Source: Acidimicrobiia bacterium (lineage in GTDB: Bacteria > Actinomycetota > Acidimicrobiia > Acidimicrobiales > AC-14). Taken from it: 19,317 nucleotides of DNA. The stretch spans positions 1 through 19,317 of the forward strand of contig JAFAUA010000445.1 in NCBI GenBank assembly GCA_019243595.1, in the 5' to 3' direction. The notes beneath the pieces were generated by a model. That model saw nothing but the letters and a program-made list of their open reading frames with translations, made no database searches and was not told where the DNA came from. A program made the translations under genes and the position numbers. Positions 3,876-19,031 of the stretch are shown here, piece after piece (the first letter of the stretch is position 1; every line of letters starts with the position of its first letter).

Positions 3876-4651
3876 TTGGCCACGTACCCGCCGTCGATGG
3901 GCAACAGCACACCGGTGATGTTCTTGGCCCGGTCTGAGCAAAGGAACACGGCCGCCTCGGCGCAGTCCTCGGCGGTGACCGGCCGGCCCATGGGGTGGAT
4001 CGAGCCAGCGGCCTGCGCCACCTGTTCGATCTGATCCTCCGGGAGCTGCAGGCCGCCGGCGGCCATGAAGCCGGTGTAGGGCATGGCCCCGGGGCACAGC
4101 GCGTTCACGCGGATGTTCTCGGGAGCAACCTCCACGGCGACTGCGCGCGTCAGCTGCACCACAGCGCCTTTGGTGGCTCCGTACACCGTGCCACCCCAGC
4201 CGACGAGGCCGGCGACCGAACCGGTGTTGAGGATGACGCCACCGTCGCCCTGCTTCTTGAACTGCTCGACGGCGTACTTGCAGCCGAGGAACACCCCGCC
4301 GAAGTTGACCGCCGCGAGCTTCTGGTAGTCGGCGAACGAGTGGTCGGTGAACGTCATGCCGAGGCGAGGGGTGGGGATGCCGACGTTGTTGAACATGATG
4401 TCGAGGCGACCGAAATGCTCGACGGCCGCTTGGATGGCGGCGGCGACGTCTCCTTCCTTCGACACGTCGGTGGCGACGGCGACCGCGGTGCCGCCAGCCT
4501 CTTCGATCTGGCGCACGGTCTCCTTGGCGCCATCGGCGTCGAGATCGGCGCACACGACGCGCGCCCCTTCTTCAACGAAACGCAGGGCGGATGCGCGCCC
4601 CACGCCCGACGCCGAGCCGGTGATGACTGCGTTCTTGCCTTCGAGAAGCAT
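3872..4651 (-). CDS. Short-chain dehydrogenase/reductase (classical SDR)
   Basis: This 259-residue NAD(P)-dependent alcohol dehydrogenase or keto-reductase has the expected classical SDR length. The cofactor motif TGSASGVG lies at 11-18. The acidic residue D37 after the second beta strand favours NAD(H). The usual NNAG reads NNVG at 88-91. The catalytic residues are Ser145, Tyr157 and Lys161 (YGATK), and the C-terminus is the usual IDGGYVAK. The ATG at 4651 is chosen because it directly precedes the LEGKNAVITG opening; the open frame upstream lies in the amidohydrolase gene. It lies 11 bases after that gene and overlaps the P450 by 4 bases. A plausible job is oxidising an alcohol made by the P450, or a beta-hydroxyacyl intermediate. 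The substrate is not determinable. Confidence 0.93.
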   Translation of the reverse strand: MLLEGKNAVITGSASGVGRASALRFVEEGARVVCADLDADGAKETVRQIEEAGGTAVAVATDVSKEGDVAAAIQAAVEHFGRLDIMFNNVGIPTPRLGMTFTDHSFADYQKLAAVNFGGVFLGCKYAVEQFKKQGDGGVILNTGSVAGLVGWGGTVYGATKGAVVQLTRAVAVEVAPENIRVNALCPGAMPYTGFMAAGGLQLPEDQIEQVAQAAGSIHPMGRPVTAEDCAEAAVFLCSDRAKNITGVLLPIDGGYVAK

Positions 4652-5868: not shown

Positions 5869-7331
5869 CGCAGGTCTCCAATCACCAGATGCTTCACTTC
5901 CTGGAATTCGCGGATGCCCTCGATTCCGCGCTCGCGACCGACGCCGCTCTGCTTGTAGCCGCCGGCGGGTGCGTACGCGGTGAACAGCGACCGGTTCACG
6001 TTGACGGCACCGCTGCGCAGCCGTCGGGCAATCGCAGTGGCCACCGCGGTATCGGCCCCGTAGACCTGGTTGGACAGGCCGTAGGGCGTGTCGTTGGCGA
6101 TGCGAACTGCGTCGTCGACGTCGTCGTAGCCGAGCACGGTGAGCACGGGACCAAAGATCTCGTCTCGGGCCGCCGGGTTGTCGTTGTCGGGGACGTCGAG
6201 GACGGTCGGCTCGAAGTAGTAGCCACGCTCGAGCTCGGGGGGACGACGGCCACCGCAGCCGACCTTGCCGCCGTTCTCCTCGGACAGGGCGACGTAGCGC
6301 TCGCAGCGCTCGACGGCCGCGGCGTTGATCAGCGGACCGATCATCGCACCCGGGTCCTCGGCGGGGTTGCCGACCTTCAGCTGGCTGTAGGCACCGGCCA
6401 CCAGCTCGAGGGCCTCCGCTTTCCGCTCGTGGGGCACGAGCATGCGGGTGGCGGACACGCACGCCTGCCCCGACGTCATGGCCACCGCCTGCATGGCGCC
6501 GAGCGGCGTGCAGTCGATGGCGTCGTCGAGAAAGATCTGTGCCGACTTCCCGCCGAGTTCGAGCGACACGCGCTTCACCGTGCCGGACGCCTGAGAGAGG
6601 ATGCGACGGCCGACGGCGGTCGAGCCCGTGAACGACACCATGTCCACTCTCGGGTCGCTCGTGAGCAGCTCCGCTCCCGCTGAGCCGTCCTCGATGACGA
6701 CACTGAGCACGCCGTGCGGCAGGCCGGCGGCGTCGGCCGCGTGGCCGAAGATCAGAGAAGACAGGGGCGTCAGCGGACTCGGTCGCAGGATCACCGAGTT
6801 GCCAGCCATGAGTGCCGGGATCAGCTTTTGGAACGCCATGATGATGGCGCCGTTGTACGGCGTGATTGCGCTCACCACGCCGACGGGCTCATAGCGGCGC
6901 ACGCTGAGGCCGACCTTGCCCGCCGTCAGTTCGGCGACGGGAACGGGGTTCGACTCCTCTTCTGGCAACGAGAGGTACAGGTCGACGGTGTTGCGAGCCA
7001 GCGCCATGCCCATGCCGTACTGCGAGCTGTCGGCGTACATGCGGGGCTGGCCGGCCTCGGCCATCATCGTTTCGACGAGGTCGTCCTTCTTCGCGGCCAC
7101 CTCGTCGAGGAAGGCGTGCAGCTTCTCCGCCCGCTCGCGCCGCGGAACGTCGGTCCACTCGCCGCCATCAAAAACCTCGCGAGCCGCGACGATCGCCGAT
7201 TCGACCTCGGCGAGCGGCGTGGCGCCCGCTTCGGCAACGACGGACTCGTCAGCCGGGCTCTCGACGCTGAACGGCTCCCCTTCGACCCACCGTCCCGCGA
7301 CATACGACCGCCGCCCGTCCAGGATCGTCAT
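5865..7331 (-). CDS. NAD(P)-dependent aldehyde dehydrogenase
   Basis: This 488-residue aldehyde dehydrogenase oxidises an aldehyde to a carboxylic acid. Numbering from the ATG at 7331, PYNG with Asn160 lies at 158-161, the cofactor motif FTGSTAVG at 234-241, the general base Glu258 in ELGGKS, the nucleophile Cys291 in GQACVSA, and EIFGPVL at 391-397. The KPSE-type lysine that usually contacts the cofactor phosphate or adenosine ribose is Arg183 (ILRPSPLTP), an unusual but conservative change. An ATG at 7340 is also in frame, but the AGGATGG five bases before 7331 makes the inner start the better one. A palindromic operator-like site (7352-7368) lies just upstream, so the genes from here to 2209 may have their own promoter. 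The neighbours suggest oxidation of a P450/SDR-derived aldehyde. Confidence 0.93.
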   Translation of the reverse strand: MTILDGRRSYVAGRWVEGEPFSVESPADESVVAEAGATPLAEVESAIVAAREVFDGGEWTDVPRRERAEKLHAFLDEVAAKKDDLVETMMAEAGQPRMYADSSQYGMGMALARNTVDLYLSLPEEESNPVPVAELTAGKVGLSVRRYEPVGVVSAITPYNGAIIMAFQKLIPALMAGNSVILRPSPLTPLSSLIFGHAADAAGLPHGVLSVVIEDGSAGAELLTSDPRVDMVSFTGSTAVGRRILSQASGTVKRVSLELGGKSAQIFLDDAIDCTPLGAMQAVAMTSGQACVSATRMLVPHERKAEALELVAGAYSQLKVGNPAEDPGAMIGPLINAAAVERCERYVALSEENGGKVGCGGRRPPELERGYYFEPTVLDVPDNDNPAARDEIFGPVLTVLGYDDVDDAVRIANDTPYGLSNQVYGADTAVATAIARRLRSGAVNVNRSLFTAYAPAGGYKQSGVGRERGIEGIREFQEVKHLVIGDLR

Positions 7332-7351
7332 CGCCGCCATCCTACGCCGTG

Positions 7352-7368
7352 GTAGAGCGACATTCTAC
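7352..7368. promoter_or_regulatory. Operator-like palindrome, site A (aldehyde dehydrogenase start)
   Basis: On the plus strand it reads GTAGAGCGACATTCTAC, and on the minus strand GTAGAATGTCGCTCTAC. The outer arms GTAGA/TCTAC pair perfectly around seven central bases. It fills most of the gap between the thiolase-like stop (7369) and the aldehyde dehydrogenase starts (7340/7331). It shares the arms of sites B and C. On the minus strand it contains TAGAAT, which could be a -10 hexamer, but I see no good -35 upstream. Confidence 0.6.
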
Positions 7369-8559
7369 CTAGACGTCCGCGCCGTAGACGATGGCGCCGC
7401 CGAAGTGGGGCGACGAGTGACAGGCCAGACCGACGGTGGCCTTCTCGCGCTGACGCTCGCCGGCGCGGCCGGAGAGCTGGAGGTAACACTCGAGCATCTG
7501 GGGGACGCCGTGCATGCGGCCGTTGCCGAGGGCGCCGCCGCCCGACAGCACCGGCAGGCCGGTCCGTGAGTCGCTGTCTATGCCGCCGTCCTTGACCAAG
7601 CGGTGCGCCTCCCCTACCGGGCAGAGGCCGAGCACCTCGAGCCAGAAGTACACGAACGGCGAGAAGCCGTCGTAGAGCTGGGGTACGTCGAGGTCGCCGG
7701 GGCCCAGCCCCGACGTCGTCCACAGACGCCGCGCTGTTTCGGTGCCGACCTCATAGAGGTCGTCGAGCGGCCAGTGCAGCGGCAGCCGCCGGCGGGTCGG
7801 GGCGCCCATGCCGAAGCCGCGTACGTAGACCGGCTTGTTCGGGAGGTCACGCGCCCGTTCGGCGGACGTGAGCACGAAGCACGCCACGCCGTCGACGGGG
7901 ATGTCGGCGTCGTACCGGCAGATCGGCTCGCTCACCAGCGGCGCCGCCAGGTACTCGTCGGCAGTCAAAGGGCGGTCGTGCCAGTACGACCAGGGGATTC
8001 GCGCACCGTTCTTGCGGGCCTCGACCAGCACAGCTGCCATCGATTCCCGGCACGCGCCATAGCGCTGCAGGTACTCGTTGTACGTCATGCCGATCATCGC
8101 CAGCGGACCGAAGAACCCCTGAGGGGCCGTCCACTGGTTCGACCCACTGGCCTCCTGCATCGGATTGCCGTGGTAGCTGCCAGCGGGATTGTGGAGGGCC
8201 CGGTGCACCAGCACGTGCGTGGCTGCGCCGCTGGCGATGGCATTCACCGCCAGCATCACAGACCCCGGTAGCTGCCCGACGCCCTGGAAGCCCGACACGT
8301 ATGTCGGGTTGACGCCGAGGTGCTCGGCCAGCCAGTTGGACGTCACCATGCTCACGCCGTCCTGCATGGCGTGGGCGCCGGCCGTCGGGAACAACGCACT
8401 CGAGGTGAAGCCGTCGATCTGGTCGACTCGCAGACCCGCATCGGTGATGGCTTGCTTCGCCGTGTCGAGGGCGACGGCGCCGAGTGTGCGGTCGAAGTGC
8501 CGGACGATCGGGCTCTGCGCGTACCCGGCGACGGCGACCGCGTCGCGTTTGAAGGTCAC
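7369..8559 (-). CDS. Thiolase-like protein (lipid-transfer/SCP2-thiolase family), no canonical nucleophilic Cys
   Basis: The 396-residue protein has the thiolase fold pattern: an N-terminal AVAVAGYAQSP opening, a central conserved segment (VSGFQGVG at 88-95) and a C-terminal GGGALGNGRMHG. Where a true thiolase carries its acylated cysteine (around residue 88-89) there is Val-Ser. His350 occupies the usual GHP/GxxH region. LYDGFS at 295-300 carries Tyr296, as in Ltp-type proteins. The start GTG at 8559 overlaps the DUF35 stop as GTGA. The adjacency matches Ltp2 with its DUF35 partner, a retro-aldolase in steroid side-chain degradation, so a C-C lyase or aldolase role is more likely than thiolysis. 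That is inference from family knowledge; a non-catalytic acyl-CoA-binding role is the alternative. Confidence 0.88.
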   Translation of the reverse strand: MTFKRDAVAVAGYAQSPIVRHFDRTLGAVALDTAKQAITDAGLRVDQIDGFTSSALFPTAGAHAMQDGVSMVTSNWLAEHLGVNPTYVSGFQGVGQLPGSVMLAVNAIASGAATHVLVHRALHNPAGSYHGNPMQEASGSNQWTAPQGFFGPLAMIGMTYNEYLQRYGACRESMAAVLVEARKNGARIPWSYWHDRPLTADEYLAAPLVSEPICRYDADIPVDGVACFVLTSAERARDLPNKPVYVRGFGMGAPTRRRLPLHWPLDDLYEVGTETARRLWTTSGLGPGDLDVPQLYDGFSPFVYFWLEVLGLCPVGEAHRLVKDGGIDSDSRTGLPVLSGGGALGNGRMHGVPQMLECYLQLSGRAGERQREKATVGLACHSSPHFGGAIVYGADV

Positions 8560-8975
8560 GCCTCGGGAACCAACGCGAACGCGGGGATGGCGACGCCCGG
8601 CGCCAGGTCCTCGAACGTCACGGTGACGCGGCTGCCGGCGCGCAGCGCCGCGTCCGCGCCCCCGAGCAGGCGGCCGATGAGGCGCACGTCGCCCTCGTCG
8701 AGACGCACGTCGACGAGGAGCAGCGGGAGGTCGTCATCGAAGCCGGGCAGGAACGACTGGTGGAGAACCGTCCACGAGCACACGGTGCCCGAGCCGCTTA
8801 CGGGCTCGAAGCGGAACTGGGGATCGGTGTGGTGGCAGTGCGGACACACCAGGTCGGGCGGATGGGTGAGCTCGTTGCAGCGGAAGCAGCGGGCGATGAC
8901 CAGCCGGTGCTCGGCCGCCGCCGCCCAGAAGGATGCCGAGAGATCGTCGGCAACCGGAAGGGGGCGGCCAGGCAT
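8556..8975 (-). CDS. DUF35 zinc-ribbon/OB-fold protein (acyl-CoA-associated)
   Basis: This 139-residue protein has the two-part DUF35 layout: an N-terminal rubredoxin-like zinc ribbon with Cys30-x2-Cys33 and Cys44-x2-Cys47, then an OB-fold from about residue 55 (GSGTVCSWTVLHQSF onward) ending in FALVPEA. The ATG at 8975 shares one base with the CoA transferase stop (TGATG), and its own stop overlaps the thiolase-like start by 4 bases. DUF35 proteins are known to bind next to thiolase-fold partners, for example the DUF35 part of ChsH2 with Ltp2, where they position the acyl-CoA and are needed for activity. Coupled translation with the thiolase-like gene supports a complex of the two here. Confidence 0.9.
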   Translation of the reverse strand: MPGRPLPVADDLSASFWAAAAEHRLVIARCFRCNELTHPPDLVCPHCHHTDPQFRFEPVSGSGTVCSWTVLHQSFLPGFDDDLPLLLVDVRLDEGDVRLIGRLLGGADAALRAGSRVTVTFEDLAPGVAIPAFALVPEA

Positions 8976-10186
8976 CAGGGAATGACGGCTGTGTCGCGCA
9001 GGGCCGTGATGTCGTCCCAGCCGTAGCCGAGCTCCAGCAGGATCGTCTCCGTGTGCTCGCCGTGTTCGGGCGACCGGCGCAGATCGGGGGGATGCTCGTC
9101 GAACTGCACCGGAACGCTCGGCAACCGGTAGGCCGGTCCACCCTCGGCCGCCACGTCGCCGATGTAATCGTTAGCGACGACCTGCGGGTCGTCGAGCAGC
9201 TCCTCGACGGCTTGGACCGGCGCCCACGGCACGTCGAGCGTGTGCAGCAGGTCCTTCCACTCGGCGAAGGTCTTGCTGACGAACAGCTCGTCGAGCACGG
9301 CCACGCACGCCGCTGCGTTGGCCCGCCGGGCGTGGTGGTCCGCGAAGCGCTCGTCACTTGCGAGATCGGGCCGTTCGACGAGATCGCAGAACGGCGCCCA
9401 GTAGCGGTCGGACTCGAGAAACATCAGCTGGATGTGGCGGCCGTCTTTGGTGCGGTAGGCCGCGACGAGCGGGTTGGCGGTGCCGCGGTCATTGCTCGCC
9501 CTGGGCTCACCGCCTTGCAATGCGGCGAGCAGATCCGACGACAGCGTCCACATGGCCATCGCCAGCAGCGAGACGTCGACCACGCTCCCCTCGCCTGTCC
9601 GCGCGCGGCCGAGCAGGGCGGCGGCGATGCCGAACGCCAACGCCATGCCGCCGTTGCGGTCGCCCATCGCCCCCCGCTGGTTGATCGGGTACTGGCGATC
9701 AGGCGGCGTCAGCACATGGGCCAGGCCGCCGCGGGCGAAGAACGCCGACGCGTCGTACCCGGCCATCCCTGCGTCGGGGCCGCGCATTCCGTAGCCCGTG
9801 CCCCGCGCGTAGACGAGCCGCGGGTACCGCGAACGCACCTCGTCGACGCCAAGCCCGAGTCGTTCCAGCGCCTCGGGCCGGAAGCTGGTGAGCAGGACGT
9901 CGGCCCCGTCGAGCAGCTCGTGCAGGATCTCCCGGCCCTCGTCGGTGCGCAGGTCGACAGCGAGCGAACGCTTGCCCCGGTTGGCGAGGGCGACCGAAAG
10001 ATTGACCCCGCTCCCGCTGTCCACGCCGATCCCCTGCGTCGCCAACGCCCGGTACGGATCACCTTCGGGCTTGTCGACGCGGACGACGTCGGCGCCCCAG
10101 TCGGCCAGGAGGGCGCCCGCCACTGGCACGAACACCCACTGCGCCAGCTCCACGACCCGAACGCCCTCGAACGCTCCCTGCTGCAC
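8975..10186 (-). CDS. CaiB/BaiF-family CoA transferase (family III)
   Basis: This 403-residue protein, normal family length, transfers CoA between carboxylic acids. The opening FEGVRVVELAQWVFVPVAG, the following LLADWGADVVRVDKPEGDP and the RGKRSLAVDL segment are hallmarks of the family. Asp176 in GAMGDRNGG fits the catalytic aspartate that forms the mixed anhydride. The GTG at 10186 is chosen because GGGAGGGAA lies immediately before it and it begins the conserved domain; the frame is open further upstream but only through the promoter region and the divergent gene. It is the first gene of the minus-strand run, and site B lies 35 bases upstream. With the acyl-CoA synthetase it gives the island two routes for thioester formation: ligase for entry, transferase for recycling CoA (inference). 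It could also act as an alpha-methylacyl-CoA racemase-like enzyme, which shares the fold. Confidence 0.92.
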   Translation of the reverse strand: MQQGAFEGVRVVELAQWVFVPVAGALLADWGADVVRVDKPEGDPYRALATQGIGVDSGSGVNLSVALANRGKRSLAVDLRTDEGREILHELLDGADVLLTSFRPEALERLGLGVDEVRSRYPRLVYARGTGYGMRGPDAGMAGYDASAFFARGGLAHVLTPPDRQYPINQRGAMGDRNGGMALAFGIAAALLGRARTGEGSVVDVSLLAMAMWTLSSDLLAALQGGEPRASNDRGTANPLVAAYRTKDGRHIQLMFLESDRYWAPFCDLVERPDLASDERFADHHARRANAAACVAVLDELFVSKTFAEWKDLLHTLDVPWAPVQAVEELLDDPQVVANDYIGDVAAEGGPAYRLPSVPVQFDEHPPDLRRSPEHGEHTETILLELGYGWDDITALRDTAVIP

Positions 10187-10220
10187 TTCCCTCCCGCGTG
10201 ACTCGCGATGGCGCCGTAGT

Positions 10221-10237
10221 GTAGAACGTCGCTCTAC
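10221..10237. promoter_or_regulatory. Operator-like palindrome, site B (divergent caiB-like / transporter promoter region)
   Basis: The site reads GTAGAACGTCGCTCTAC, with perfect GTAGA/TCTAC outer arms. It lies in the 157-base divergent region between the CoA transferase start (10186) and the substrate-binding protein start (10344), so one bound dimer could control both directions. On the plus strand TAGAAC (10222-10227) is a possible -10, with a weak GTGACT 18 bases upstream at 10198-10203. The minus-strand promoter is not clear to me. Confidence 0.65.
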
Positions 10238-10259
10238 CAGTGTGCTCTCGAGGGAGGAC

Positions 10260-10340
10260 GTGGCCGGGCTAGTGGCGAATTTCTCGCACAGAGTGCGCCG
10301 CACGAGGGGGTCCATGAACACGCCGGGGAGGCGCGCGTAG
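10260..10340 (+). CDS. Possible 26-codon leader ORF (or interrupted 5' end of the binding-protein gene)
   Basis: A GTG at 10260 follows GAGGGAGGAC and opens 26 codons ending in TAG at 10338-10340. A second in-frame start (ATG 10314, with GAGGGGG upstream) lies within it. The frame is the same as that of the substrate-binding protein, whose first GTG follows the TAG by only three bases. The encoded peptide is basic (NFSHRVRRTRG, NTPGRRA) and has no recognisable domain. It may be a translated leader that lets ribosomes reinitiate on the binding-protein gene. It may instead be the real N-terminus cut by a nonsense mutation or sequencing error, or chance. The ribosome-binding-site match and shared frame are seen; translation is not shown. 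Confidence 0.35.
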   Translation: MAGLVANFSHRVRRTRGSMNTPGRRA

Positions 10341-10343
10341 CCG

Positions 10344-11903
10344 GTGCCAGTGTTCCTCCAGCTCCGGTTGTGGCTCTCGCAGGGACCGGCCCGCGAGCGC
10401 GTCGCCGCCGGAGTCGCGGTTGCCATCGCCATCACGCTCCTGATCTTGGCGTCGCTCCCGATGACCGACAGCGGTGGCGGGCACGGATCAACGATCGCCA
10501 GCGCAGGCGGCGAAGCGAACGGCGCCGACGTGCTGGGCGGCGCCACATCCGCCAACGGCGCGACTGCGAACGGCGCGGGCGGCACGGCGGGAGCACTCGG
10601 CGCCAGTGGCGTCAACAGCGGCACCGCCTCCTCGACGGGCGCCGGTTCGACAGGCGCAACGTCGGGAAGCGCAAGCGCTCGGACGGCGGCTGCCGGCCCC
10701 AGTTGCACCGGGACACTGGCCGCCAGCGCCCCGGGGATCACGCCCACCCAGGTGAGCGTCGACGTGTCCTACGTCGACCTGGCGGGGCCCGTGGGCAACG
10801 CCGCCTTCAGCATCCGCCCCGACCAGCAGCAGATCATCGCCGCCGCCGCGGACAACATCAACAAGACCGGCGGCGTCGCATGTGGGCGCAAGATCGTCGT
10901 GAAGTCGTATGCGGTCAACCCGATCGACCAGAACGACCAGCAGTCGAAGTGCCTACAGATGGTGCAGGACAAGCCGTTCGCTGTGCTCGACGCCGCCGGC
11001 TACATCACGCCCGTCTCACGCGCCTGCTTCTGGCAGAACAAGCTGCCGTTGCAAATCTCGACCTCGGCCGGCAACACCGAACTGGGAAAGGGCGCCCCGT
11101 ACCTGTACGGCATCATCGCCCCGTCCGAGAAGCAGCTGCGCGACGCGGCGCTCGGTCTCGCCGCCCAAGGTTTCTTCGCGGCGCCGAAGTTCAAGAAGCT
11201 CGGCCTCCTCGAAGACAGCTGCGACCCGGCCGCGAACGGCGAGCTCGAGTCGAGCCTGGCCAAGGCCGGCGTCGGCTCGGGCCAGATCAGCAAGGTCGTG
11301 ATCAGCTGCCAGCTCGTTGCGCCCCCGAACGAGATCCAGCAGGCCGTGATCACGAACCGGACGGCGGGCGCCACCCACGTCCTGCTCGCCAGCTCGATCT
11401 CGAACTCGCAGAACTACACGACGCTCGCCGCCCAACAGAACTTCCATCCTGTTTATGCGACATCGGATTACGGCACCGACACCGCGAACACCGGCCATTG
11501 GGATGCTTCGTTCGTCGGAGCGCTGGCCATCACGAGCAACCACTACGGCGAATTGAGCTCGGGGATCCGCAACGCGCAGGTCAATGCGTGTGATGCCCTC
11601 CTGAAGGCGCACGGGCTTACGGGCATCAACAGCGAGAAGAACGACGAAACGGCCTTGCAGATCTGCGACCAGTTCAACTTCTTCCGCCAGGCGCTCGACA
11701 CCGTTGGCGGGAACCCCACCAGGCAGTCGTTCATCGACGCCGGCCTCGACCGCATGGGTTTGTTCCACGGCTCGATCATGGGCGACGGCAACTTCGACCG
11801 GCCCGACAAGCTGGTCGGCGGCGACTTCCACCGCACCATCCAGTTCGACGGCGGGTGCAGCTGCTGGAAGGTCAAAGACCCGAACTTCACACCGGGTTTC
11901 TGA
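10344..11903 (+). CDS. Branched-chain-amino-acid-type ABC transporter substrate-binding protein, N-terminally membrane-anchored
   Basis: The 519-residue protein is the extracytoplasmic receptor of the LIV-type transporter encoded next. Residues 20-39 form one hydrophobic helix (VAAGVAVAIAITLLILASLP). A Gly/Ala/Ser/Thr/Asn-rich linker of about 75 residues follows (43-117), then a type-1 periplasmic-binding fold from about 120 to the end. No lipobox cysteine follows the hydrophobic segment, so it looks tethered by an uncleaved helix rather than by lipid. The globular part has ten cysteines, unusually many, suggesting disulfides outside the cell. The GTG at 10344 is the first start after an in-frame TAG (10338); GTG 10350 is an alternative, and neither has a strong ribosome-binding site. 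The permease gene starts 9 bases after its stop. The ligand is unknown: LIV-type receptors also bind aromatic, amide and steroid-like acids. Confidence 0.9.
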   Translation: MPVFLQLRLWLSQGPARERVAAGVAVAIAITLLILASLPMTDSGGGHGSTIASAGGEANGADVLGGATSANGATANGAGGTAGALGASGVNSGTASSTGAGSTGATSGSASARTAAAGPSCTGTLAASAPGITPTQVSVDVSYVDLAGPVGNAAFSIRPDQQQIIAAAADNINKTGGVACGRKIVVKSYAVNPIDQNDQQSKCLQMVQDKPFAVLDAAGYITPVSRACFWQNKLPLQISTSAGNTELGKGAPYLYGIIAPSEKQLRDAALGLAAQGFFAAPKFKKLGLLEDSCDPAANGELESSLAKAGVGSGQISKVVISCQLVAPPNEIQQAVITNRTAGATHVLLASSISNSQNYTTLAAQQNFHPVYATSDYGTDTANTGHWDASFVGALAITSNHYGELSSGIRNAQVNACDALLKAHGLTGINSEKNDETALQICDQFNFFRQALDTVGGNPTRQSFIDAGLDRMGLFHGSIMGDGNFDRPDKLVGGDFHRTIQFDGGCSCWKVKDPNFTPGF

Positions 11904-11912
11904 GCGCCACCG

Positions 11913-14681
11913 ATGCAGAGCGGCCTCGTCCTCGGCGTCATCACCGGCCTGACGTACGGGATCCTCGCCGTCGGCATCGTCCTGATCTTCAAGACCAACC
12001 GCTTCATCAACATGGCCCACGCCCAGCTAGGCGCGCTGGCGGCCTTGCTGCTGGGTCGGTTCGTCCTCACCAACGGATGGAGTTGGTGGTTGGCCTTCCC
12101 GGCGTCGCTCGCCATCGGCGTCGTCACTGGACTCGTGATCGAGCGCCTGGTCGTTCGTCCGATGGTCGCCCGAAAGCGCAAGGGCATCTCGCTCCTGCTC
12201 GTGTCGATCGGGGTCGCTCAGCTGCTCACGACGCTGACGTACCTCAAGCAGTTCTCGCCGGACAGCACGACGCTGTACTCGAAGGGCTACCCGACGCCGT
12301 TCGACGCGTCCTGGGAGGTGGGTTCGGTCGTGCTCCGGTCGAACCACATCATGATCCTGGTGCTGGTCCCGCTTGTCGTCATCGGCCTGGCGGCGTTCCT
12401 GCGCTACAGCATCTGGGGCAAGGCGATCCGCGCGTCAGCCTCCAACGCCCAGGCGGCGCGGCTCTGCGGCATACCCGTGTCTCGGGTCAGCGCCATCGCC
12501 TGGGGCATCGCGGGGCTGCTGAGCGCGCTGACCGCCGTCCTGCTGGCGCCGAGCCAGGGCTCGTTCAACGCCGCCGCCCTCGGACCGCAGTTGCTTTTCG
12601 CGTCGCTCGGCGCCGCCGCCCTCGGCGGGTTCACGAGCATCCCCGCCGCCCTGGTGGGTGGGCTGCTCATCGGTGAGGTCGAGCACATCACGCTGGCGGT
12701 AAAGCACAACGGGGGCGACGCACAGCTCGCAGTGTTCGTCGCCGTCCTCGTGATTCTCTTCGCTCGCGGCCGAGTCATCAGCCGGTCGGCAGGCGAGACG
12801 TCGATGGCCATGACCGAGGACGCGCCACCGCTGCGCATCCCGCCGGCCGTCGCCGACCGCGCCATCGTGCGGTACCAGCGTGCGTACCTCGCGGCCGGCG
12901 CGTTGCTCGTCGGCATCGTCGCTCCCCTGCTGCCGTACTTCCACACCGAAGGCCACCGCTTCGAGCTGGTCGTGATCCTCGTCGTCGCCATAGCCGGCGT
13001 GTCGCTGACGATGCTGGTCGGGTGGGCCGGCCAGGTGAGCCTCGGCCACTTCGCGGTGCTGGGCCTCGGCGGCTACATGGCGGCCAAGCTCGGCGCGCAC
13101 GACCTCCCCCTGGTCCCCGTGGTCCTGCTCGCGGGCGTCACCGGAGCCGTCGCCATGGTGATCGTGGGCCTCCCCGCGCTGCGCCTCCGCGGCCTCACTC
13201 TTGCGGTCACCACACTGGGGTTCGCGGTCGCCGCCCCTGCATGGCTGTTCCAGCAGTCGTGGCTCGGCGCCGCCGGTCAGGGCACCGTCCTGGTGCCCCC
13301 ACTCGGACTGCACGGCGTGGGCCGGCTCCACTCGCAGCTCAACGTGTATTACGTGACGCTCGCCCTGCTCGCTGTCGTGCTCGTCTGCGCCAGCCAGTTC
13401 CGTCGCTCCAACCCGGGCCGGCTGGTCGTCGCCGTGCGCGACAACGAGCGCTCGGTCGCCAGCCTCGGCATCACGCCCGCGACCGTGAAGCTGGGTGTGC
13501 TCGCGGCTTCAGGGTTCTTCGTCGCCGCGGCCGGCGTGCTGTGGGGCGCGTCGTGGCGGTCGCTGTCGGTCGACCTCCTGCGTCCCGAGCAGTCACTCGT
13601 CCTGCTCGCCGTACCCGTGATCGGCGGGCTCGGGTCGCTGGCGGGCGCCGTCGCGGGCGCCGTTACCGTCTACCTGCCTTCGTTCCTGCTCGGCGGGGTG
13701 CTGGAATCGATCTTCGGCTCGTTCGCGAAGCAGATCGGGTTCCAGCTGGCGCTCGGCGGCGTCGGCCTCGTGCTGATCCCGCTCTTCTACCCAGCGGGGT
13801 TGGCGGGCGCTGTGCGGGACCGCTGGGAGAAGTTCCTCGAAGGCTTGCGACCAGTCGTTCCCCAGGAAGAGGAGACCGCCGAGACCCCGCTCGTGGTGCG
13901 CGATGTCGACAAGCGCTTCGGCGGCCTCGTCGCTCTCGCGGAGGTCTCGCTCGACGTCCGCCCCGGCGAGGTCGTGGGCCTGATCGGCCCCAATGGCGCC
14001 GGCAAGACGACGCTCATGAACGTCATCTCCGGTGACCTGCGCTGCGACGAGGGCACGGTCTGCGTCTTCGGACGCGACGTAACCGCGCTGGCGCCCGAGT
14101 TCCGAGCGCACTTCGGGCTGGGCCGCAACTATCAGGACGCCAAGCTCTTCCCCGGACTCACCGTCCGCGAGACTTTGCAGCTGGGGGCGTCTCGGCGCGC
14201 GCGCGTGGGCGTCTTCTCGTCGATGGTTGGGGCGCCGTGGGTGAAGTTCGCAGAGCGCCGGTCGCGGCAGCGGGCCGACGCCGTCATCGAGCGCCTGGGT
14301 CTCGACGAATGGGCCGACACGCTGACGTCAGACCTCTCCACAGGAACGCGACGGATCTGCGAGCTGGCCGTGCAGGTGACCGCGGAGCCGCGAGTGCTGC
14401 TACTCGACGAGCCGACGGCGGGCATTGCCCAGCGCGAGGCCGAGGCCTTCGGGCCGCTGCTCCGCCGCATCCGCGACGAGCTCGAGTGCAGCATCCTGAT
14501 CGTCGAGCACGACATGCCGCTGCTGATGGGCGTGTGCGACCGCGTCTACGCCATGGACCTCGGTCGGGTGATCGCCGAGGGCACGCCCGACGAGATCAAG
14601 AACAACCCCGACGTCATCGCTAGCTACCTAGGCACGAGCGACGTTGCCGTCAACCGGTCAGGAAAGGTGGTAGTCCGATAG
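11913..14681 (+). CDS. Fused LivH-LivM-LivG: ABC permease-permease-ATPase in one polypeptide
   Basis: This 922-residue protein joins three normally separate LIV-transporter subunits. Residues 1 to about 295 are the LivH-type permease (TNRFINMAHAQLGALAAL near the start). About 315-640 are the LivM-type permease, with GWAGQVSLGHFAVLGLGGYM around 369-388. From about 657 comes the LivG-type ATPase: Walker A GPNGAGKT at about 692, a Q-loop region GLGRNYQDAKLFPGLT, a signature reading LSTGT at about 808 instead of LSGGQ/LSYGQ, Walker B LLLDEPTAG from about 829, and the H-loop IVEHD at about 864. The reading frame runs unbroken through both junctions, so the fusion is real in this sequence. It would form the transmembrane pore and one ATPase half, with LivF as the other. 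The ATG at 11913 is the start, 9 bases after the binding protein. Confidence 0.94.
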   Translation: MQSGLVLGVITGLTYGILAVGIVLIFKTNRFINMAHAQLGALAALLLGRFVLTNGWSWWLAFPASLAIGVVTGLVIERLVVRPMVARKRKGISLLLVSIGVAQLLTTLTYLKQFSPDSTTLYSKGYPTPFDASWEVGSVVLRSNHIMILVLVPLVVIGLAAFLRYSIWGKAIRASASNAQAARLCGIPVSRVSAIAWGIAGLLSALTAVLLAPSQGSFNAAALGPQLLFASLGAAALGGFTSIPAALVGGLLIGEVEHITLAVKHNGGDAQLAVFVAVLVILFARGRVISRSAGETSMAMTEDAPPLRIPPAVADRAIVRYQRAYLAAGALLVGIVAPLLPYFHTEGHRFELVVILVVAIAGVSLTMLVGWAGQVSLGHFAVLGLGGYMAAKLGAHDLPLVPVVLLAGVTGAVAMVIVGLPALRLRGLTLAVTTLGFAVAAPAWLFQQSWLGAAGQGTVLVPPLGLHGVGRLHSQLNVYYVTLALLAVVLVCASQFRRSNPGRLVVAVRDNERSVASLGITPATVKLGVLAASGFFVAAAGVLWGASWRSLSVDLLRPEQSLVLLAVPVIGGLGSLAGAVAGAVTVYLPSFLLGGVLESIFGSFAKQIGFQLALGGVGLVLIPLFYPAGLAGAVRDRWEKFLEGLRPVVPQEEETAETPLVVRDVDKRFGGLVALAEVSLDVRPGEVVGLIGPNGAGKTTLMNVISGDLRCDEGTVCVFGRDVTALAPEFRAHFGLGRNYQDAKLFPGLTVRETLQLGASRRARVGVFSSMVGAPWVKFAERRSRQRADAVIERLGLDEWADTLTSDLSTGTRRICELAVQVTAEPRVLLLDEPTAGIAQREAEAFGPLLRRIRDELECSILIVEHDMPLLMGVCDRVYAMDLGRVIAEGTPDEIKNNPDVIASYLGTSDVAVNRSGKVVVR

Positions 14682-14704
14682 CTGTCGAGCCCGCCACCGA
14701 TCCC

Positions 14705-15475
14705 ATGCTGCGCGTCGAGCACGTCGACTTCGCCTACGGCCGCACGCAGGTTCTGTTCGACGTCTCGCTAGACGTCGGCGCAGGCGAGGCGTTGGCGCTG
14801 CTGGGCACGAACGGCGCCGGGAAGTCCACGTTGCTGAAGTGCATCGCCGGGCTCGAGCGCCCGACCGCGGGTCGCATCGAGATGGGCGGCGCGGACATCA
14901 CCGGCGTGGACGCCGAGGATGTGGTGAAGCGGGGCGTCGTGCTGGTGCCGGGGGGCCACGCGATCTTCCCGGACATGACGGTCGCCGAGAACCTCGAGAT
15001 GCAAGCGTTCGTGCTCCGGCACGATCCGGTCCGTCTCCGCGAGGGTCGCGAGCGGGTGCTGGAGTTCTTCCCGCGCCTCGGCGAGCGCCTGCAGCAGCAA
15101 GCGGGGACAATGTCCGGCGGCGAGCAGCAGCAGGTGGGCTTGGCGAAGGCGATGCTGCTCGAGCCGGTCGTGCTCTGCGTGGACGAGCTGTCGCTGGGGC
15201 TGGCACCCGTGATCGTCGAGGAGCTGCTGCACGCGATCGAGCGCATCCGCACGACGGGGGTTTCGCTCGTGGTCGTGGAGCAGAGCCTCAACGTGGCGTG
15301 CGCCATGTGTGAGCGGGCTGTGTTCCTCGAGAAGGGCGCCGTGCAGTTTGAGGGTCGGGCCGCCGAATTGCTCGAGCGCGATGACATCGCACGAGCGGTG
15401 TTCCTCGGCGACCGGTCCGCCACCGACGGGAAGGCGTCGCCGAAGCGACGCACCCGCCGGGCCCGCAAGAGCTAA
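14705..15475 (+). CDS. LivF-type ABC transporter ATPase
   Basis: The 256-residue ATPase is the second nucleotide-binding subunit of the LIV-type transporter. Walker A GTNGAGKS lies at 34-41, the signature MSGGEQQQ at 136-143, Walker B VVLCVDE at 155-161, and the switch residue is Gln193 in VVVEQS, as is normal for LivF. A basic tail (SPKRRTRRARKS) follows the domain. The ATG at 14705 has no visible ribosome-binding site. An in-frame ATA at 14678, seven bases after GGAAAGGTGG, would overlap the LivHMG stop as ATAG and add nine residues (discussed as a finding). The TAA stop interlocks with the stop of the convergent hydrolase gene. It acts together with the fused LivHMG protein at the inner face of the membrane. 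Confidence 0.93.
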   Translation: MLRVEHVDFAYGRTQVLFDVSLDVGAGEALALLGTNGAGKSTLLKCIAGLERPTAGRIEMGGADITGVDAEDVVKRGVVLVPGGHAIFPDMTVAENLEMQAFVLRHDPVRLREGRERVLEFFPRLGERLQQQAGTMSGGEQQQVGLAKAMLLEPVVLCVDELSLGLAPVIVEELLHAIERIRTTGVSLVVVEQSLNVACAMCERAVFLEKGAVQFEGRAAELLERDDIARAVFLGDRSATDGKASPKRRTRRARKS

Positions 15476-17640
15476 CTGTTCGGCGTCAGGACGTAGGCGT
15501 GGGTGCCGCTGAAGTCGGCGCCGAGTGACAGGTGCCCGTTCGTGGGCGTGAGCGTGCCCACCTCGGCTCCATCGCGTGTCACCGAGACGCGACCGCTCCA
15601 GGGGCCGGTCAGGACGATCGTGGCGGGGCCGTCGCCGGTGACCGACAGCTGCACCGGCGAACCCGTCTCGATCGAAGCCCGGGTCAGATCGAGAGTTGTC
15701 GTCGCCACGTTCGTGAGCTTCACCCGGAGGCCGTTGAGCGTGGGCTGCGCCGGCCCCGGCGTCACTCGGTTCTCGAGCTTGTACCAGGCGTCCCGGGTCT
15801 GCACTGTCGACCCAGGCGTGCCGCACACGTCGCCCGGTGTGACGATGTTCTGGCCGAACGCGGGCGGCTGCACGGAGGAACTCGTGCTTCGGTCGGCGCG
15901 AGCGAGGCTCGAGACGTCGATGGTGGCCTTGGGCGTGGAATCGACCCGGGCCTCGACATCGGTGACCCAGTACGCGCTCCGGTAGCGGAGGTTCAGTCCC
16001 GTGGACGGGTCGGACATCTCCAGGTCCGGCTCCGTTGTATAGACGACGCGCGCCGGGTTGGTGTTCCGGCGATGCGTCAGCGCCTCGAGCAGCACGCAGT
16101 TCTGGGCGGCCGGGACCACCTGGTGATGGCGAAGCAGCATCTGCCAGTAGCGCATGTCGATGCCGAGGCGGGTGGCGTTCACGAAGTCGGTGTCCTGGCC
16201 GTCAACGGCGATCTCGTCGGACAGCGGGTCGAGACGGCCGGCCAGCACCCGTACGGGGATGTCGGTCACGTTCTCCTCGGCGTTCGGGAAGATGTGGCGC
16301 AGGGGGCCGACGACCTGTTCGAGCGGGAACGTGCTGGGGGCGATCATGGGAACGATCGCCGAGAACATGTCGGGGTGCAGCTCCGAGAACCGCCACGTCC
16401 CTTGCCCGCCGAGCGAGATGCCCGACAGCACCATCCGGTTGGGGTCGATGTCGAAGCGCCGGCGGGCGTCGCTGATCACGTCGAGGATGTCCTGCTCGGC
16501 GATGCCGAAGTAGTAATCGGTCTCGCTGCGTCCGAGCGGTGTGACGACGATCGCCGGCACGTCGAACGTCGTGTTTCCGAAGAAGAAGGCACCGGGTCCC
16601 GACGGCGGCGGCGCGCCGGCGAACACTGCCTGCATGTGGTTGCCGAGGGCGCCGTGGAGCATCGTCAGCAACGGCGCCGGGCCCGGCGGGAGGTGCTTCG
16701 GGATCCACACCATGTACGGCTGGTAGGGGCCGAGGTAGTACAGCGAGTTCGCCCCTTCGATGCTGACGGGCGCGGTTCCCTCGGCCAGCTTCAGCCCGGA
16801 GTGGTAGAGGAAGGTGTGGTAGCCGCTGCCGACGGCGGGCGTGTACGTCGACTTGTTGCGCACCTTGGCGACGTCGACGGTCACCTCGGCCTCGCTCGCG
16901 GGAAGGCGCCCGGCGAGGACGTCCGCCTGCTTGGCGTCCTGCCATCCGGCCGGGAGCTCGCCGCCGACGAACGCCAGGTCGTAGACCGGCCCGCCCATCA
17001 TCCAGGAGGCGGGTGTGACGCCAAGGACGCCGGTCACTTTCCACGGCGCATCGCCTATGACCGGCAGGACGCTCGAGGGAATCGTCGTCGTCATCGTGTT
17101 GGCGGTGGGATCGATGGTCGTCGGGAAGGAGGCCACCGGGTACCACCCGGCGCCGTTCCATGCGTACAAGATCCCGCCGCTGTTGTCGGCGACCAGGAAG
17201 CGGTCGAGCCCGAGCGGGCCCTTCACCTTCCATGACCCACCGGGAATCCCCGGCGCTCCCGTCGCGCTGTTGCCGTCGGTGTCGAAGCCCACCCCGAGAA
17301 GCGGCAGCGAAGGATCGACCAGGGTTTCGAGGACCGCGGTGATCTTCGTGCCGTTCGTCGCCGGCGCCAGCTGGAGCTGGATGAGGTCAGCGGCGTTCGG
17401 CGGCGTCGACGAGTACGTGGCCGCGCCCTCGCCCCCGGCGGCCGTGTTGGTGCCCCGGTCGTCGTACGCGTAGTCCGTCCACACGAGCGCGCCGTTGACG
17501 TACGAGGTCTGGCCGGACACGAGCGCGCCGAGCGCGGGACCGTTTGGCGCGCTCGCAGGCTGGGGACTCGACGCCCGGGCGAGAGGCAGCACGCAGGCGA
17601 CGAGCGCGGCAGTGCCAACGGCGACGACTCGGACGCGCAT
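15472..17640 (-). CDS. Secreted multidomain alpha/beta-hydrolase (esterase/peptidase S9-like)
   Basis: The 722-residue protein has a signal peptide (Arg-containing start, hydrophobic stretch to about residue 22, likely cleavage after ARA near 23-25). A beta-rich N-terminal region follows, about 25-320. An alpha/beta-hydrolase domain at about 320-560 has the nucleophile elbow GISLGG (Ser409), a probable catalytic Asp471 in GRLDPLSDE and His505 or His506 in LRHHQVV. A C-terminal beta-sandwich-like region follows, about 600-722. The ATG at 17640 has a strong GGGAGG six bases upstream; the frame is open to 17682 but only into the operator. It is transcribed alone, towards the transporter, with site C 22 bases upstream. 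An extracellular ester hydrolase feeding the transporter is the simplest reading; peptidase or polyester-depolymerase activity cannot be excluded. The substrate is unknown. Confidence 0.9.
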   Translation of the reverse strand: MRVRVVAVGTAALVACVLPLARASSPQPASAPNGPALGALVSGQTSYVNGALVWTDYAYDDRGTNTAAGGEGAATYSSTPPNAADLIQLQLAPATNGTKITAVLETLVDPSLPLLGVGFDTDGNSATGAPGIPGGSWKVKGPLGLDRFLVADNSGGILYAWNGAGWYPVASFPTTIDPTANTMTTTIPSSVLPVIGDAPWKVTGVLGVTPASWMMGGPVYDLAFVGGELPAGWQDAKQADVLAGRLPASEAEVTVDVAKVRNKSTYTPAVGSGYHTFLYHSGLKLAEGTAPVSIEGANSLYYLGPYQPYMVWIPKHLPPGPAPLLTMLHGALGNHMQAVFAGAPPPSGPGAFFFGNTTFDVPAIVVTPLGRSETDYYFGIAEQDILDVISDARRRFDIDPNRMVLSGISLGGQGTWRFSELHPDMFSAIVPMIAPSTFPLEQVVGPLRHIFPNAEENVTDIPVRVLAGRLDPLSDEIAVDGQDTDFVNATRLGIDMRYWQMLLRHHQVVPAAQNCVLLEALTHRRNTNPARVVYTTEPDLEMSDPSTGLNLRYRSAYWVTDVEARVDSTPKATIDVSSLARADRSTSSSVQPPAFGQNIVTPGDVCGTPGSTVQTRDAWYKLENRVTPGPAQPTLNGLRVKLTNVATTTLDLTRASIETGSPVQLSVTGDGPATIVLTGPWSGRVSVTRDGAEVGTLTPTNGHLSLGADFSGTHAYVLTPNS

Positions 17641-17661
17641 GAACGACCTCCCAGCGGAGCG

Positions 17662-17678
17662 GTAGAACATCGTTCTAC
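17662..17678. promoter_or_regulatory. Operator-like palindrome, site C (hydrolase start), perfect 7-base arms
   Basis: The site reads GTAGAACATCGTTCTAC, a perfect inverted repeat of GTAGAAC around ATC. It is the best copy of the repeated site and lies 22 bases upstream of the hydrolase ATG at 17640, where it could cover that gene's -10 region. The core TAGAAC-N3-GTTCTA resembles the KstR-type pattern TnnAACnnGTTnnA but has a three-base centre rather than two. Confidence 0.75.
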
Positions 17679-17702
17679 ACACACAGCGCGAATCCCTGCC
17701 GG

Positions 17703-17731
17703 TTGAAACGACATTCTCTAGTACGTAGAGT
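17703..17731 (+). promoter_or_regulatory. Sigma-70-like promoter of the second P450 gene
   Basis: A -35 TTGAAA (17703-17708) and a -10 TAGAGT (17726-17731) are separated by exactly 17 bases. Transcription would begin near 17738, giving a leader of roughly 15 bases before the GTG at 17754. The -10 overlaps operator-like site D, as expected for repression. Confidence 0.55.
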
Positions 17732-17741
17732 GCTGTTCTCA
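17725..17741. promoter_or_regulatory. Operator-like site D (weaker copy) over the P450 -10 box
   Basis: The site reads GTAGAGTGCTGTTCTCA. The left arm GTAGA and the inner right arm GTTCT match site C, while the last two bases differ. A further half-site ATTCT at 17713-17717 lies just upstream, within CGACATTCT, which is identical to nine bases of site A. CTCTA/TAGAG at 17716-17730 forms an extra inverted repeat. The centres of sites C and D are 63 bases apart, about six helical turns. Confidence 0.45.
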
Positions 17742-17753
17742 GAAGGGGGCCAC

Positions 17754-19031
17754 GTGGGCGACTGGACGACGATCGACTTCTTCAACGACGAGTTGCTGGT
17801 CGAGGACCCGTACCCGTACTTCGACGAGCTGCGGTCCCAGTGCCCAGTGCTGGCGCTTCCCCATCTCGGCGTGGTCGCCGTCACCGGCTACGAGGAGCTC
17901 CACGAGGTCTACCGGGACACCGACAGCTTCTCGTCGTGCAACTCGGTCGTCGGACCGTTCGCCACGTTCCCGGTTCCGCTCGAGGGTGACGACGTGAGCG
18001 AGGTCGTCACCCTTTACCGCGACCAGCTCCCCATGCACGAGCACATGGTGACGATGGACCCGCCGGATCACACCCGCGAGCGGGCGCTGCTCATGCGGCT
18101 GATCACGCCGAAGCGTCTGAAGGAGAACGAGGCGTTCATGTGGCGGCTCGCTGACGAGCAGCTCGACACGTTCGTCGCCAAAGGCCGGTGCGAGTTCATC
18201 TCCGCATACGCGCAACCGTTCGCCATGCTTGTCGTAGCCGACCTGCTCGGGGTTCCCGAGTCGGATCACGACACCTTCCGGCAGTTCTTCGGCATGAGCA
18301 GGAAGCCTGGGAGGGTCGGCGCCGGCGACGAGCACGAGCAGGGTGAGAATGCCCTCGCCGGCCTCGACGACTGGTTCGCCCGGTACATTGAGGATCGGCG
18401 ACGCGAGCCACGCCAGGACGTCCTCACGCAACTCGCGATCGCCAACTATCCCGACGGCACGACGCCTCCGGTGACGGCGGTGGTGCGCACGGCGACGTTC
18501 CTTTTCGCGGCTGGCCAAGAGACGACCGCTCGCCTACTCGCAGCCGCCCTCAAGCACCTGGCGGAACACCCTGATCTCCAAGACGAGCTGCGTGAGCACA
18601 AGGAGCGCATCCCCAATTTCATCGAGGAAGCGCTGCGCATCGAGAGTCCCGTGAAAGCCGACTTCCGCCTCGCCAAGCGCACCACCACGGTGGGCGACGT
18701 CGAGATCAAGGCGGGAACACCGGTGATGATGCTCAACGGGGCGGCCAACCGCGACCCTCGCCGGTTCGAGTGCCCTCACGAGTTCAAGATCGACCGGGAG
18801 AACGCCCTGAACCACATCGCCTTCGGCCGCGGCGCCCACTCCTGCCCGGGTGGTCCGCTGGCCCGAGCCGAGGGCCGCGTCAGCCTCGAGCGCATCCTCG
18901 ACCGGACCCGGGACATCCGGCTCTCCGAGGACCACCACGGGCCGCGCGCCGATCGCAGGTTCGCCTACGAGAACACATGGATCCTGCGGGGCCTCACCAA
19001 CCTGCATCTCGAGTTCACGCCCGTCGCGTGA
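17754..19031 (+). CDS. Cytochrome P450 (class I bacterial type), second of two
   Basis: The 425-residue soluble P450 has the PHE-like substrate-region pattern MDPPDHTRER at 101-110, the I-helix AAGQETT at 252-258, ExxR at E292-R295, and the haem loop FGRGAHSCPG with axial Cys364 followed by GPLARAEGR. The GTG at 17754 is chosen because AAGGGGG lies four bases upstream and just downstream of the predicted promoter. TTG 17703 and GTG 17730 are in frame but fall on the promoter elements. The canonical AGxET here contrasts with AGSGT in the P450 at 2631-3875, so the two probably act at different steps. It is followed with a GTGA overlap by the DapB-fold reductase gene. No ferredoxin is encoded nearby. 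The substrate is unknown; hydroxylation of a hydrophobic acid or terpenoid/steroid is inferred from the context. Confidence 0.93.
   Translation: MGDWTTIDFFNDELLVEDPYPYFDELRSQCPVLALPHLGVVAVTGYEELHEVYRDTDSFSSCNSVVGPFATFPVPLEGDDVSEVVTLYRDQLPMHEHMVTMDPPDHTRERALLMRLITPKRLKENEAFMWRLADEQLDTFVAKGRCEFISAYAQPFAMLVVADLLGVPESDHDTFRQFFGMSRKPGRVGAGDEHEQGENALAGLDDWFARYIEDRRREPRQDVLTQLAIANYPDGTTPPVTAVVRTATFLFAAGQETTARLLAAALKHLAEHPDLQDELREHKERIPNFIEEALRIESPVKADFRLAKRTTTVGDVEIKAGTPVMMLNGAANRDPRRFECPHEFKIDRENALNHIAFGRGAHSCPGGPLARAEGRVSLERILDRTRDIRLSEDHHGPRADRRFAYENTWILRGLTNLHLEFTPVA

What the first reader, a model, noticed from the sequence alone, without database searches (positions are those of the whole stretch)
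7352..17741. One repeated 17-base palindrome marks every transcription start in the island: a probable single regulon
Copies of GTAGA-N7-TCTAC stand at 7352-7368 (before the aldehyde dehydrogenase), 10221-10237 (between the divergent CoA transferase and transporter operons) and 17662-17678 (before the secreted hydrolase; perfect 7-base arms). A weaker copy is at 17725-17741 (over the -10 of the second P450). I found no copy inside a coding region when scanning for TAGAA/TTCTA arms. Together the sites would put uptake, extracellular hydrolysis and both catabolic blocks under one regulator. The core TAGAAC-N3-GTTCTA is close to, but one base longer at the centre than, the KstR pattern TnnAACnnGTTnnA known from cholesterol catabolism, so it may be a distinct TetR operator type.
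Basis: partly seen in the sequence, partly recalled or inferred. Interest (0 to 1): 0.75.

Follow-up and report, generated by a model that had tools for sequence, protein, structure and literature searches.

The report
TetR operator for a conserved catabolic regulon
A short mirror-image DNA sequence found at the gene starts of one catabolic gene island is very probably the landing site of the island's own TetR-type repressor; the pair recurs in many actinobacteria and resembles the cholesterol regulator KstR's site with one extra base in the middle.

Summary
GTAGA-N7-TCTAC occurs exactly at 7352, 10221 and 17662 (none in 200 shuffles) and nowhere else in the 81%-complete genome. The weak fourth site (17725) also holds: a weight matrix built only from other organisms ranks the four sites first to fourth in the window (28.6, 23.2, 22.8, 15.7; next 6.1). 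The sister species keeps the sites its assembly shows, has one more ahead of the operon that ends in ligase and tetR, and a 93% TetR; a third congener shows neither close TetR nor sites. Among 78 loci with TetR homologues (Acidimicrobiia, Nocardia, Mycobacterium, Rhodococcus, Frankia and others) the gene cluster recurs, and 42 of 47 core loci carry the motif before the CoA-transferase, aldehyde dehydrogenase or ligase gene. Loci with the TetR but no cluster gene also carry it (7 of 17), which points to the TetR as reader. The right arm runs into a TACNNT −10-like box in 40 of 63 sites. Half-site and architecture are KstR's, but the spacer is 3 bp, not 2; the same genome also has a KstR-like protein and N2 sites. 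Binding, inducer and substrate are untested. New member of a known kind.

The parts
7352..7368 (.). Operator 1, in the thiolase-ALDH gap, ahead of the ALDH-amidohydrolase-SDR-P450-F420 reductase run (minus strand); read on the minus strand its left arm gives a possible -10 TAGAAT
   Evidence: score 23.2; a site of score 10 or more in 21 of 51 ALDH upstream regions
10221..10237 (.). Operator 2, between the divergent CoA-transferase (minus) and transporter (plus) genes; TACACT (TACNNT) on the minus strand
   Evidence: 22.8; 17 of 17 identical in the sister, where the flanks are 90%; a site in 26 of 45 CoA-transferase upstream regions
17662..17678 (.). Operator 3, perfect 7-base arms, 19 bp before the ATG (17642) of the secreted hydrolase
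   Evidence: 28.6; sites 3 and 4 together 33 of 34 identical in the sister, rest of the aligned stretch 58 of 84 columns, 7 of these end gaps
17725..17741 (.). Operator 4 (weak), over the -10 of the second P450
   Evidence: 15.7, rank 4; identical in sister, but so is most of that promoter; -10 TAGAGT lies inside it
17703..17731 (+). Promoter-like TTGAAA-N17-TAGAGT of the second P450
   Evidence: 1 found, 0.0 in shuffles
1574..2212 (+). TetR-family regulator, proposed reader of the operators
   Evidence: PF00440
216..1577 (+). acyl-CoA ligase (its frame is open upstream of the listed ATG to the contig edge), overlaps tetR start
   Evidence: PF00501/PF13193
2209..2634 (-). F420H2-dependent quinone reductase family protein
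   Evidence: PF04075; start placed by me
2631..3866 (-). cytochrome P450 (first)
   Evidence: PF00067; start placed by me
3872..4651 (-). short-chain dehydrogenase
   Evidence: start placed by me
4663..5856 (-). amidohydrolase_2 family, nearest solved chain 'DitZ'
   Evidence: PF04909; start not fixed
5865..7340 (-). aldehyde dehydrogenase
7369..8559 (-). thiolase / lipid-transfer-protein type
8556..8975 (-). ChsH2-type OB-fold (DUF35) protein
8975..10186 (-). family III CoA-transferase
   Evidence: start placed by me
10344..11903 (+). protein in the position of a substrate-binding protein (no Pfam match)
   Evidence: N-terminal hydrophobic stretch in the translation
11913..14681 (+). fused branched-chain-type ABC permeases plus ATPase
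14705..15475 (+). second ABC ATPase
15472..17642 (-). secreted hydrolase (signal-peptide-like start), weak match to PHB-depolymerase esterases
   Evidence: partial, below cut-off
17754..19031 (+). cytochrome P450 (second), CYP150A6-like

Best explanation
The palindrome is the operator of the island's TetR-family protein (1574-2212). A TetR dimer reads two GTAGAAC half-sites 3 bp apart; the sites sit on or beside the -10 box, so the bound dimer would shut RNA polymerase out. When an inducer, most likely the substrate or one of its CoA thioesters, binds the TetR, it would let go, and the transporter, secreted hydrolase, CoA-transferase block, aldehyde dehydrogenase block and second P450 (and, judging by the sister, the ligase) would come on together. 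Because tetR appears co-transcribed behind a site, it should repress itself. Shown by sequence: the sites, their confinement, conservation, position, and coupling to this TetR subfamily. Inferred: binding, operon structure, repression rather than activation, inducer, substrate.
For: Local: 3 exact copies in the own assembly, all in this island. Sister species: conserved sites, 93% TetR, and a site ahead of the run that ends in tetR; the third congener has no close TetR (best 29%) and no site at up to 2 mismatches. Broad: in the 78 TetR-homologue loci (sister included) GTAGAAC-N3-GTTCTAC gives 31 hits at up to 2 mismatches in 27 loci against a mean of 1.4 (largest 8) for permuted half-sites; at up to 1 mismatch 9 against 0.017 (largest 1); spacers 2 and 4 give 2 and 0 at up to 2 mismatches. 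Sites precede CoA-transferase, ALDH and ligase genes, not the operon-internal ones: score 10 or more in 26/45, 21/51 and 16/24 against OB 1/48, thiolase 0/47, amidohydrolase 0/53, SDR 0/51, P450 0/52, F420 reductase 0/52, and tetR itself 9/84 (mismatch counts agree). TetR-only loci: 11 sites within 2 kb in 7 of 17 loci; 300 permuted matrices average 1.5, largest 9. -10: the right arm ends in TAC, and the base three further on, the sixth of a TACNNT box, is T in 43 of 63 sites (full box in 40). Whole genomes: of 10 hits in 14 chosen genomes only 2 lie away from the island.
Against: No binding, transcription or phenotype data. 5 of 47 core loci have no site of score 10 or more, and 10 of 17 TetR-only loci have none within 2 kb. 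Homologues of the second P450 elsewhere show no site at up to 3 mismatches (0 of 22; 2 of 22 at 4), though two Nocardia carnea loci have a variant site about 80 bp before one. Counts are not independent (many Nocardia, Mycobacterium, Frankia), and the 78 loci may be a capped sample. The matrix was trained on the same upstream regions whose three counts are quoted, so those are partly circular; at cut-off 6 (observed 26, 21, 16) column-permuted matrices average 3.3, 3.2 and 1.5, but the largest reach 22, 25 and 16, so one exceeds the ALDH count and one equals the ligase count. TA of the TACNNT box is fixed by the motif itself, so only its sixth base is informative. In the window only CoA-transferase has TACNNT and only ALDH and the second P450 have TAGANT; no promoter was recognised for the transporter or the hydrolase. 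Near-perfect sites in G021 and G077, genomes without a close TetR, are not explained; G002 has one more 2-mismatch hit on C386.
Confidence: 0.88

Rival explanations
1. The sites are KstR operators and the island belongs to the KstR (steroid) regulon.
For: Same half-site TAGAAC and same overlap with -10 as reported for KstR (PMC1995591 passages); a KstR-like protein exists in the genome.
Against: KstR sites have a 2-bp centre; in the 78 loci spacer 2 gives 2 hits and spacer 3 gives 31 at up to 2 mismatches. In the own genome the N2 sites (4 at up to 1 mismatch) lie on C564, the contig of the KstR-like gene (3), and C358 (1), none in the window; the backwards control is also 3, so only the two exact ones and the clustering count. 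The third congener keeps N2 sites (5, control 0) while lacking N3 sites and the TetR.
Confidence: 0.05
2. A regulator other than this TetR, not linked to the island, reads the sites; the TetR is a passenger of the cluster.
For: Coupling through a conserved cluster cannot by itself tell reader from neighbour; 10 of 17 TetR-only loci have no site within 2 kb.
Against: The other 7 of 17 loci with a TetR homologue and no cluster gene in reach do carry sites near tetR, 11 in all, more than any of 300 permuted matrices; tetR and sites are present or absent together in the three genus members.
Confidence: 0.06
3. The palindrome is a promoter element or chance symmetry, not an operator.
For: The arms can contain -10-like TAGAAT/TAGAGT and abut TACNNT.
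Against: Both arms are conserved with fixed 3-bp spacing and two-fold symmetry; in the own assembly only here; permuted palindromes are not enriched.
Confidence: 0.01

Closest known systems
KstR (Rv3574) of mycobacteria and its operator TAGAAC-N2-GTTCTA
   Same: TetR family; TAGAAC half-sites; operator overlapping -10 and autoregulation reported for KstR (PMC1995591 passages); catabolic lipid-type genes. Recognition-helix stretch VALGTLYR (own-genome KstR-like) against VALQTFYR here.
   Different: 3-bp instead of 2-bp centre, G rather than mostly C/T outside the half-site, 26% identity to the own-genome KstR-like protein over 149 residues, one island instead of a genome-wide regulon; this TetR gives only 19.6 bits to the KstR model, cut-off 280.
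AibR of Myxococcus xanthus (name recalled; PDB 5k7f, listed as a TetR family regulator)
   Same: TetR family, best-scoring solved chain in the profile search (4.2e-14)
   Different: Distant; its operator was not compared here.
Mce3R of M. tuberculosis
   Same: TetR-type, lipid genes; matched (5e-9)
   Different: Double-TetR protein that binds non-palindromic 25-bp sites (PMC11667970, abstract and passages).
LexA box of actinobacteria (recalled)
   Same: GAAC...GTTC arms
   Different: 4-bp centre and different outer bases (recalled; not tested by search).

Membership tests
TetR family regulators | TetR_N helix-turn-helix domain | tested here: met
   PF00440, 45.1 bits against cut-off 24
TetR family regulators | Palindromic operator at the promoters of adjacent genes | tested here: met
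   (by sequence only)
TetR family regulators | Dimer binding and release by a ligand | not testable with these tools
   needs purified protein
KstR | KstR curated model over its cut-off | tested here: not met
   19.6 bits against 280
KstR | 2-bp centre in the operator | tested here: not met
   3-bp centre; spacer 2 gives 2 hits, spacer 3 gives 31 at up to 2 mismatches
KstR | TAGAAC half-site overlapping -10 | tested here: met
   (by sequence; half-site variants such as GAGAGT occur); KstR description from PMC1995591 passages
Mce3R | Tandem TetR domains and non-palindromic site | tested here: not met
   212 aa with one TetR_N; palindromic site

The most novel reading that the evidence does not exclude
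Two TetR regulators of the same cell, KstR and this one, read practically the same half-site and are kept apart mainly by one base of spacer (N2 against N3), a spacing code held across Acidimicrobiia, Nocardia, Mycobacterium, Rhodococcus and Frankia; and the N3 regulon is a widespread catabolic programme not described in the papers searched here, perhaps for terpenoid-like acids (CYP150A6-like P450, DitZ-like amidohydrolase, thiolase/OB-fold pair).
Probability: 0.4. Interest if true: 0.72.

Novelty: new member of a known kind. Interest (0 to 1): 0.57.

Why it matters
It gives a regulator, its operator and a conserved target set for a gene cluster found in many environmental actinobacteria, so that the substrate can be sought by asking what releases the repressor. 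It also offers a natural test of how TetR paralogues with similar recognition helices avoid cross-talk: half-site shared with KstR, spacer one base longer.

Tried and rejected
Laxer scans: at 3 mismatches neither form of the motif is enriched. Exact scan of 99 genomes: 20 have a match; leaving out the own genome and G002, the other 18 have 33 forward matches against 37 to the backwards control, so those are mostly noise. The near-perfect sites of G021 and G077 and one in G007 were fetched, and only 100 bases on each side were read. TetR paralogues at 33% identity or less in relatives were not followed. Plasmid records for an annotated copy of the cluster: 483 records match the ALDH, all under 60% identity, so none looks like an orthologue. 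Literature: 10 searches; searched for the motif letters (all terms in 456 and 8 papers; two listed, judged by title and start of abstract); only the KstR paper was about such a site. Nothing useful on DitZ or CYP150A6. Subscription papers are not held, so absence from print is not shown. Papers: PMC1995591, PMC11667970, PMC4482099 and PMC6891630 were seen as passages, the rest as listings. Spacer controls with the matrix: spacers 1, 2, 4, 5 give 10, 37, 7, 62 hits of score 10 or more against 108 for spacer 3 with the centre unweighted; for some only 3 of 37 and 1 of 62 lie within 25 bp of an N3 site, and I looked at the best 14 of each. The site ahead of the ligase run cannot be checked in the own assembly because that stretch was not found, nor the ALDH site in the sister. 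Structure prediction of the TetR was queued and had not finished at the last poll; no result is used.
Full report
OBSERVATION. Three exact copies stand against none in 200 shuffles. In the 3.70-Mb own assembly (81% complete) there is no other exact copy and no other GTAGAAC-N3-GTTCTAC at up to 2 mismatches. Laxer matching shows nothing: at up to 3 mismatches the counts fall below the controls (22 against 30.4 in the window; 29 against 33 in the genome).

GENES. Pfam and NCBIfam give: acyl-CoA ligase and TetR (plus strand); then, on the minus strand, CoA-transferase III, ChsH2-type OB-fold protein, thiolase, [site 1], ALDH, amidohydrolase_2, SDR, P450, F420 reductase; divergent from CoA-transferase across site 2, a putative binding protein and branched-chain-type ABC transporter; then a secreted hydrolase (minus) and a second P450 (plus) divergent across sites 3 and 4. 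The second P450 matches CYP150A6 over nearly its whole length (1.6e-181); the amidohydrolase matches chains named DitZ and PtmU3 (5e-61, 1e-31).

SISTER SPECIES. G002 (same genus, 70% complete) has three exact copies, on contigs that align to the window at 86-93%. Two are orthologous. Site 2 is 17 of 17 identical, but its flanks are also 90% (126 of 140 columns), so that alone says little. In the hydrolase/P450 gap sites 3 and 4 are 33 of 34 identical while the rest is 58 of 84 columns, 7 of them end gaps; the divergence is on the hydrolase side around site 3, whereas the P450 promoter with site 4 is nearly unchanged. The distance of 63 bp between the two is kept. The third copy is new: it stands about 30 bp before a cupin-like gene, followed by a phosphotransferase-like gene, the ligase and tetR, all in one direction with overlapping or close ends. 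The matching stretch was not found in the own assembly, nor the ALDH stretch in the sister's, so neither absence counts. G002 has one further hit at 2 mismatches (C386), not examined. G001 (same genus, 90% complete) has neither a close TetR (best 29%) nor sites at up to 2 mismatches, and no listed amidohydrolase match above 44%.

BROAD CONSERVATION. GTAGAAC-N3-GTTCTAC: 31 hits at up to 2 mismatches in 27 of 78 loci, mean 1.4 and largest 8 for permuted half-sites; 9 at up to 1 mismatch against 0.017; spacers 2 and 4 give 2 and 0. The gene set CoA-transferase, OB, thiolase, ALDH, amidohydrolase, SDR, P450, F420 reductase, tetR recurs, mostly at 60-80% protein identity (OB 48-68%, tetR mostly 40-53%). 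Sites stand before CoA-transferase, ALDH and ligase but not before the operon-internal genes. Of 47 loci with ALDH, amidohydrolase, P450 and tetR, 42 have a site scoring 10 or more upstream of CoA-transferase, ALDH or ligase; 79 of all 101 such hits in those loci lie before CoA-transferase, ALDH, ligase or tetR starts. The five without (L098, L106, L107, L109, L126) include three Frankia-group loci that share GAGAAGTCAACGTTCTAC before CoA-transferase, an intact right arm with a changed left one. Before homologues of the second P450 there is none at up to 3 mismatches (0 of 22).

INDEPENDENT PREDICTION. The matrix was trained on 34 distinct sites (37 in all) from these loci, without window and sister. 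This supports the weak fourth site, which a plain mismatch count could not. Column-permuted matrices are a weaker control than hoped: at cut-off 6 they average 3.3, 3.2 and 1.5 upstream regions of CoA-transferase, ALDH and ligase (observed 26, 21, 16), but the largest reach 22, 25 and 16.

WHICH REGULATOR. Of the 78 loci, 17 hold a TetR relative but no cluster gene in reach. They have 11 sites within 2 kb of tetR, in 7 loci; 300 permuted matrices average 1.5, largest 9. In two Nocardia carnea loci of this group (L080, L082) a site lies about 80 bp before a homologue of the second P450, some 3 kb from tetR. In the genomes of 14 chosen loci (12 chosen because they had a site), 10 matches at up to 1 mismatch were found in 9 genomes, 8 of them at the island (coordinates matched by me), 2 elsewhere; backwards control 0. 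The informative part is that so few lie elsewhere.

HOW IT WORKS. In 63 sense-oriented sites, TANNNT begins at the T of the right arm's TAC in 40; the motif itself fixes that TA, so the informative base is the sixth, T in 43 of 63, where the positions next to it have T in 6 to 28. So the last three bases of the operator are usually the first three of a -10-like hexamer. In the window the second P450 instead has TTGAAA-N17-TAGAGT with the -10 inside site 4, ALDH has TAGAAT in the left arm, CoA-transferase TACACT; for the transporter and hydrolase no promoter was recognised. Steric block of polymerase is the natural reading. As tetR lies at the end of a run that begins with a site-bearing gene in both layouts (CoA-transferase or ALDH ... 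F420 reductase, tetR in most core loci; ligase, tetR in the sister), it should repress itself. Neighbouring sites are 23 bp apart in 15 of 20 close pairs, most of those I could place being in Nocardia and two in Mycobacterium, which suggests two dimers side by side there.

KNOWN RELATIVES. KstR binds TAGAAC-N2-GTTCTA overlapping -10 (PMC1995591, passages). The own genome holds a KstR-like protein (6.2e-49, 167 bits, below the curated cut-off of 280; weaker matches of this model ring in 13 of 14 control genomes), and N2 sites on the same contig C564 and on C358 (4 at up to 1 mismatch, 2 exact; backwards control 3). The two proteins are 26% identical over 149 residues; the recognition stretches read VALQTFYR and VALGTLYR. 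Whether spacing alone separates the two regulons is not shown, since the base outside the half-site also differs (G here, mostly C or T in the KstR sites printed).

VERDICT. The finding is real and its interpretation right in substance. It is a new regulator-operator pair of the TetR kind, conserved with a catabolic cluster across actinobacteria. Substrate is unknown; terpenoid-like acids are a guess from CYP150A6, DitZ and the thiolase/OB pair.

Noticed in passing
among others L075, L077, L078, L090, L102, L103, L119, L122, L124, L125, L127, L141 (sites before CoA-transferase, ligase or a second tetR): Two N3 sites stand exactly 23 bp apart in 15 of 20 close pairs, hinting at side-by-side dimers.
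   Followed up: partly
window 17662-17741; L055 4165-4244: The two sites of the hydrolase/P450 gap are 63 bp apart in both species, about six helical turns, although part of the DNA between them has diverged.
   Followed up: no
window 11913-14681: One 922-aa ORF joins branched-chain-type permease stretches and an ATPase.
   Followed up: no
window 4663-5856: The amidohydrolase_2 family is greatly expanded: 16 matches in each of the three genus members and 43 in G004.
   Followed up: no
L057 about 8098; L058 about 8003: Near-perfect N3 sites in G021 and G077, genomes without a close TetR relative; the genes around them were not examined.
   Followed up: no
L106, L107, L109: Frankia-group loci without an N3 site share GAGAAGTCAACGTTCTAC before the CoA-transferase gene.
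   Followed up: no
window 15472-17642: The secreted hydrolase has no relative in the 78 loci at 1e-10 and 50% coverage; it may be a lineage-specific addition to the regulon.
   Followed up: partly
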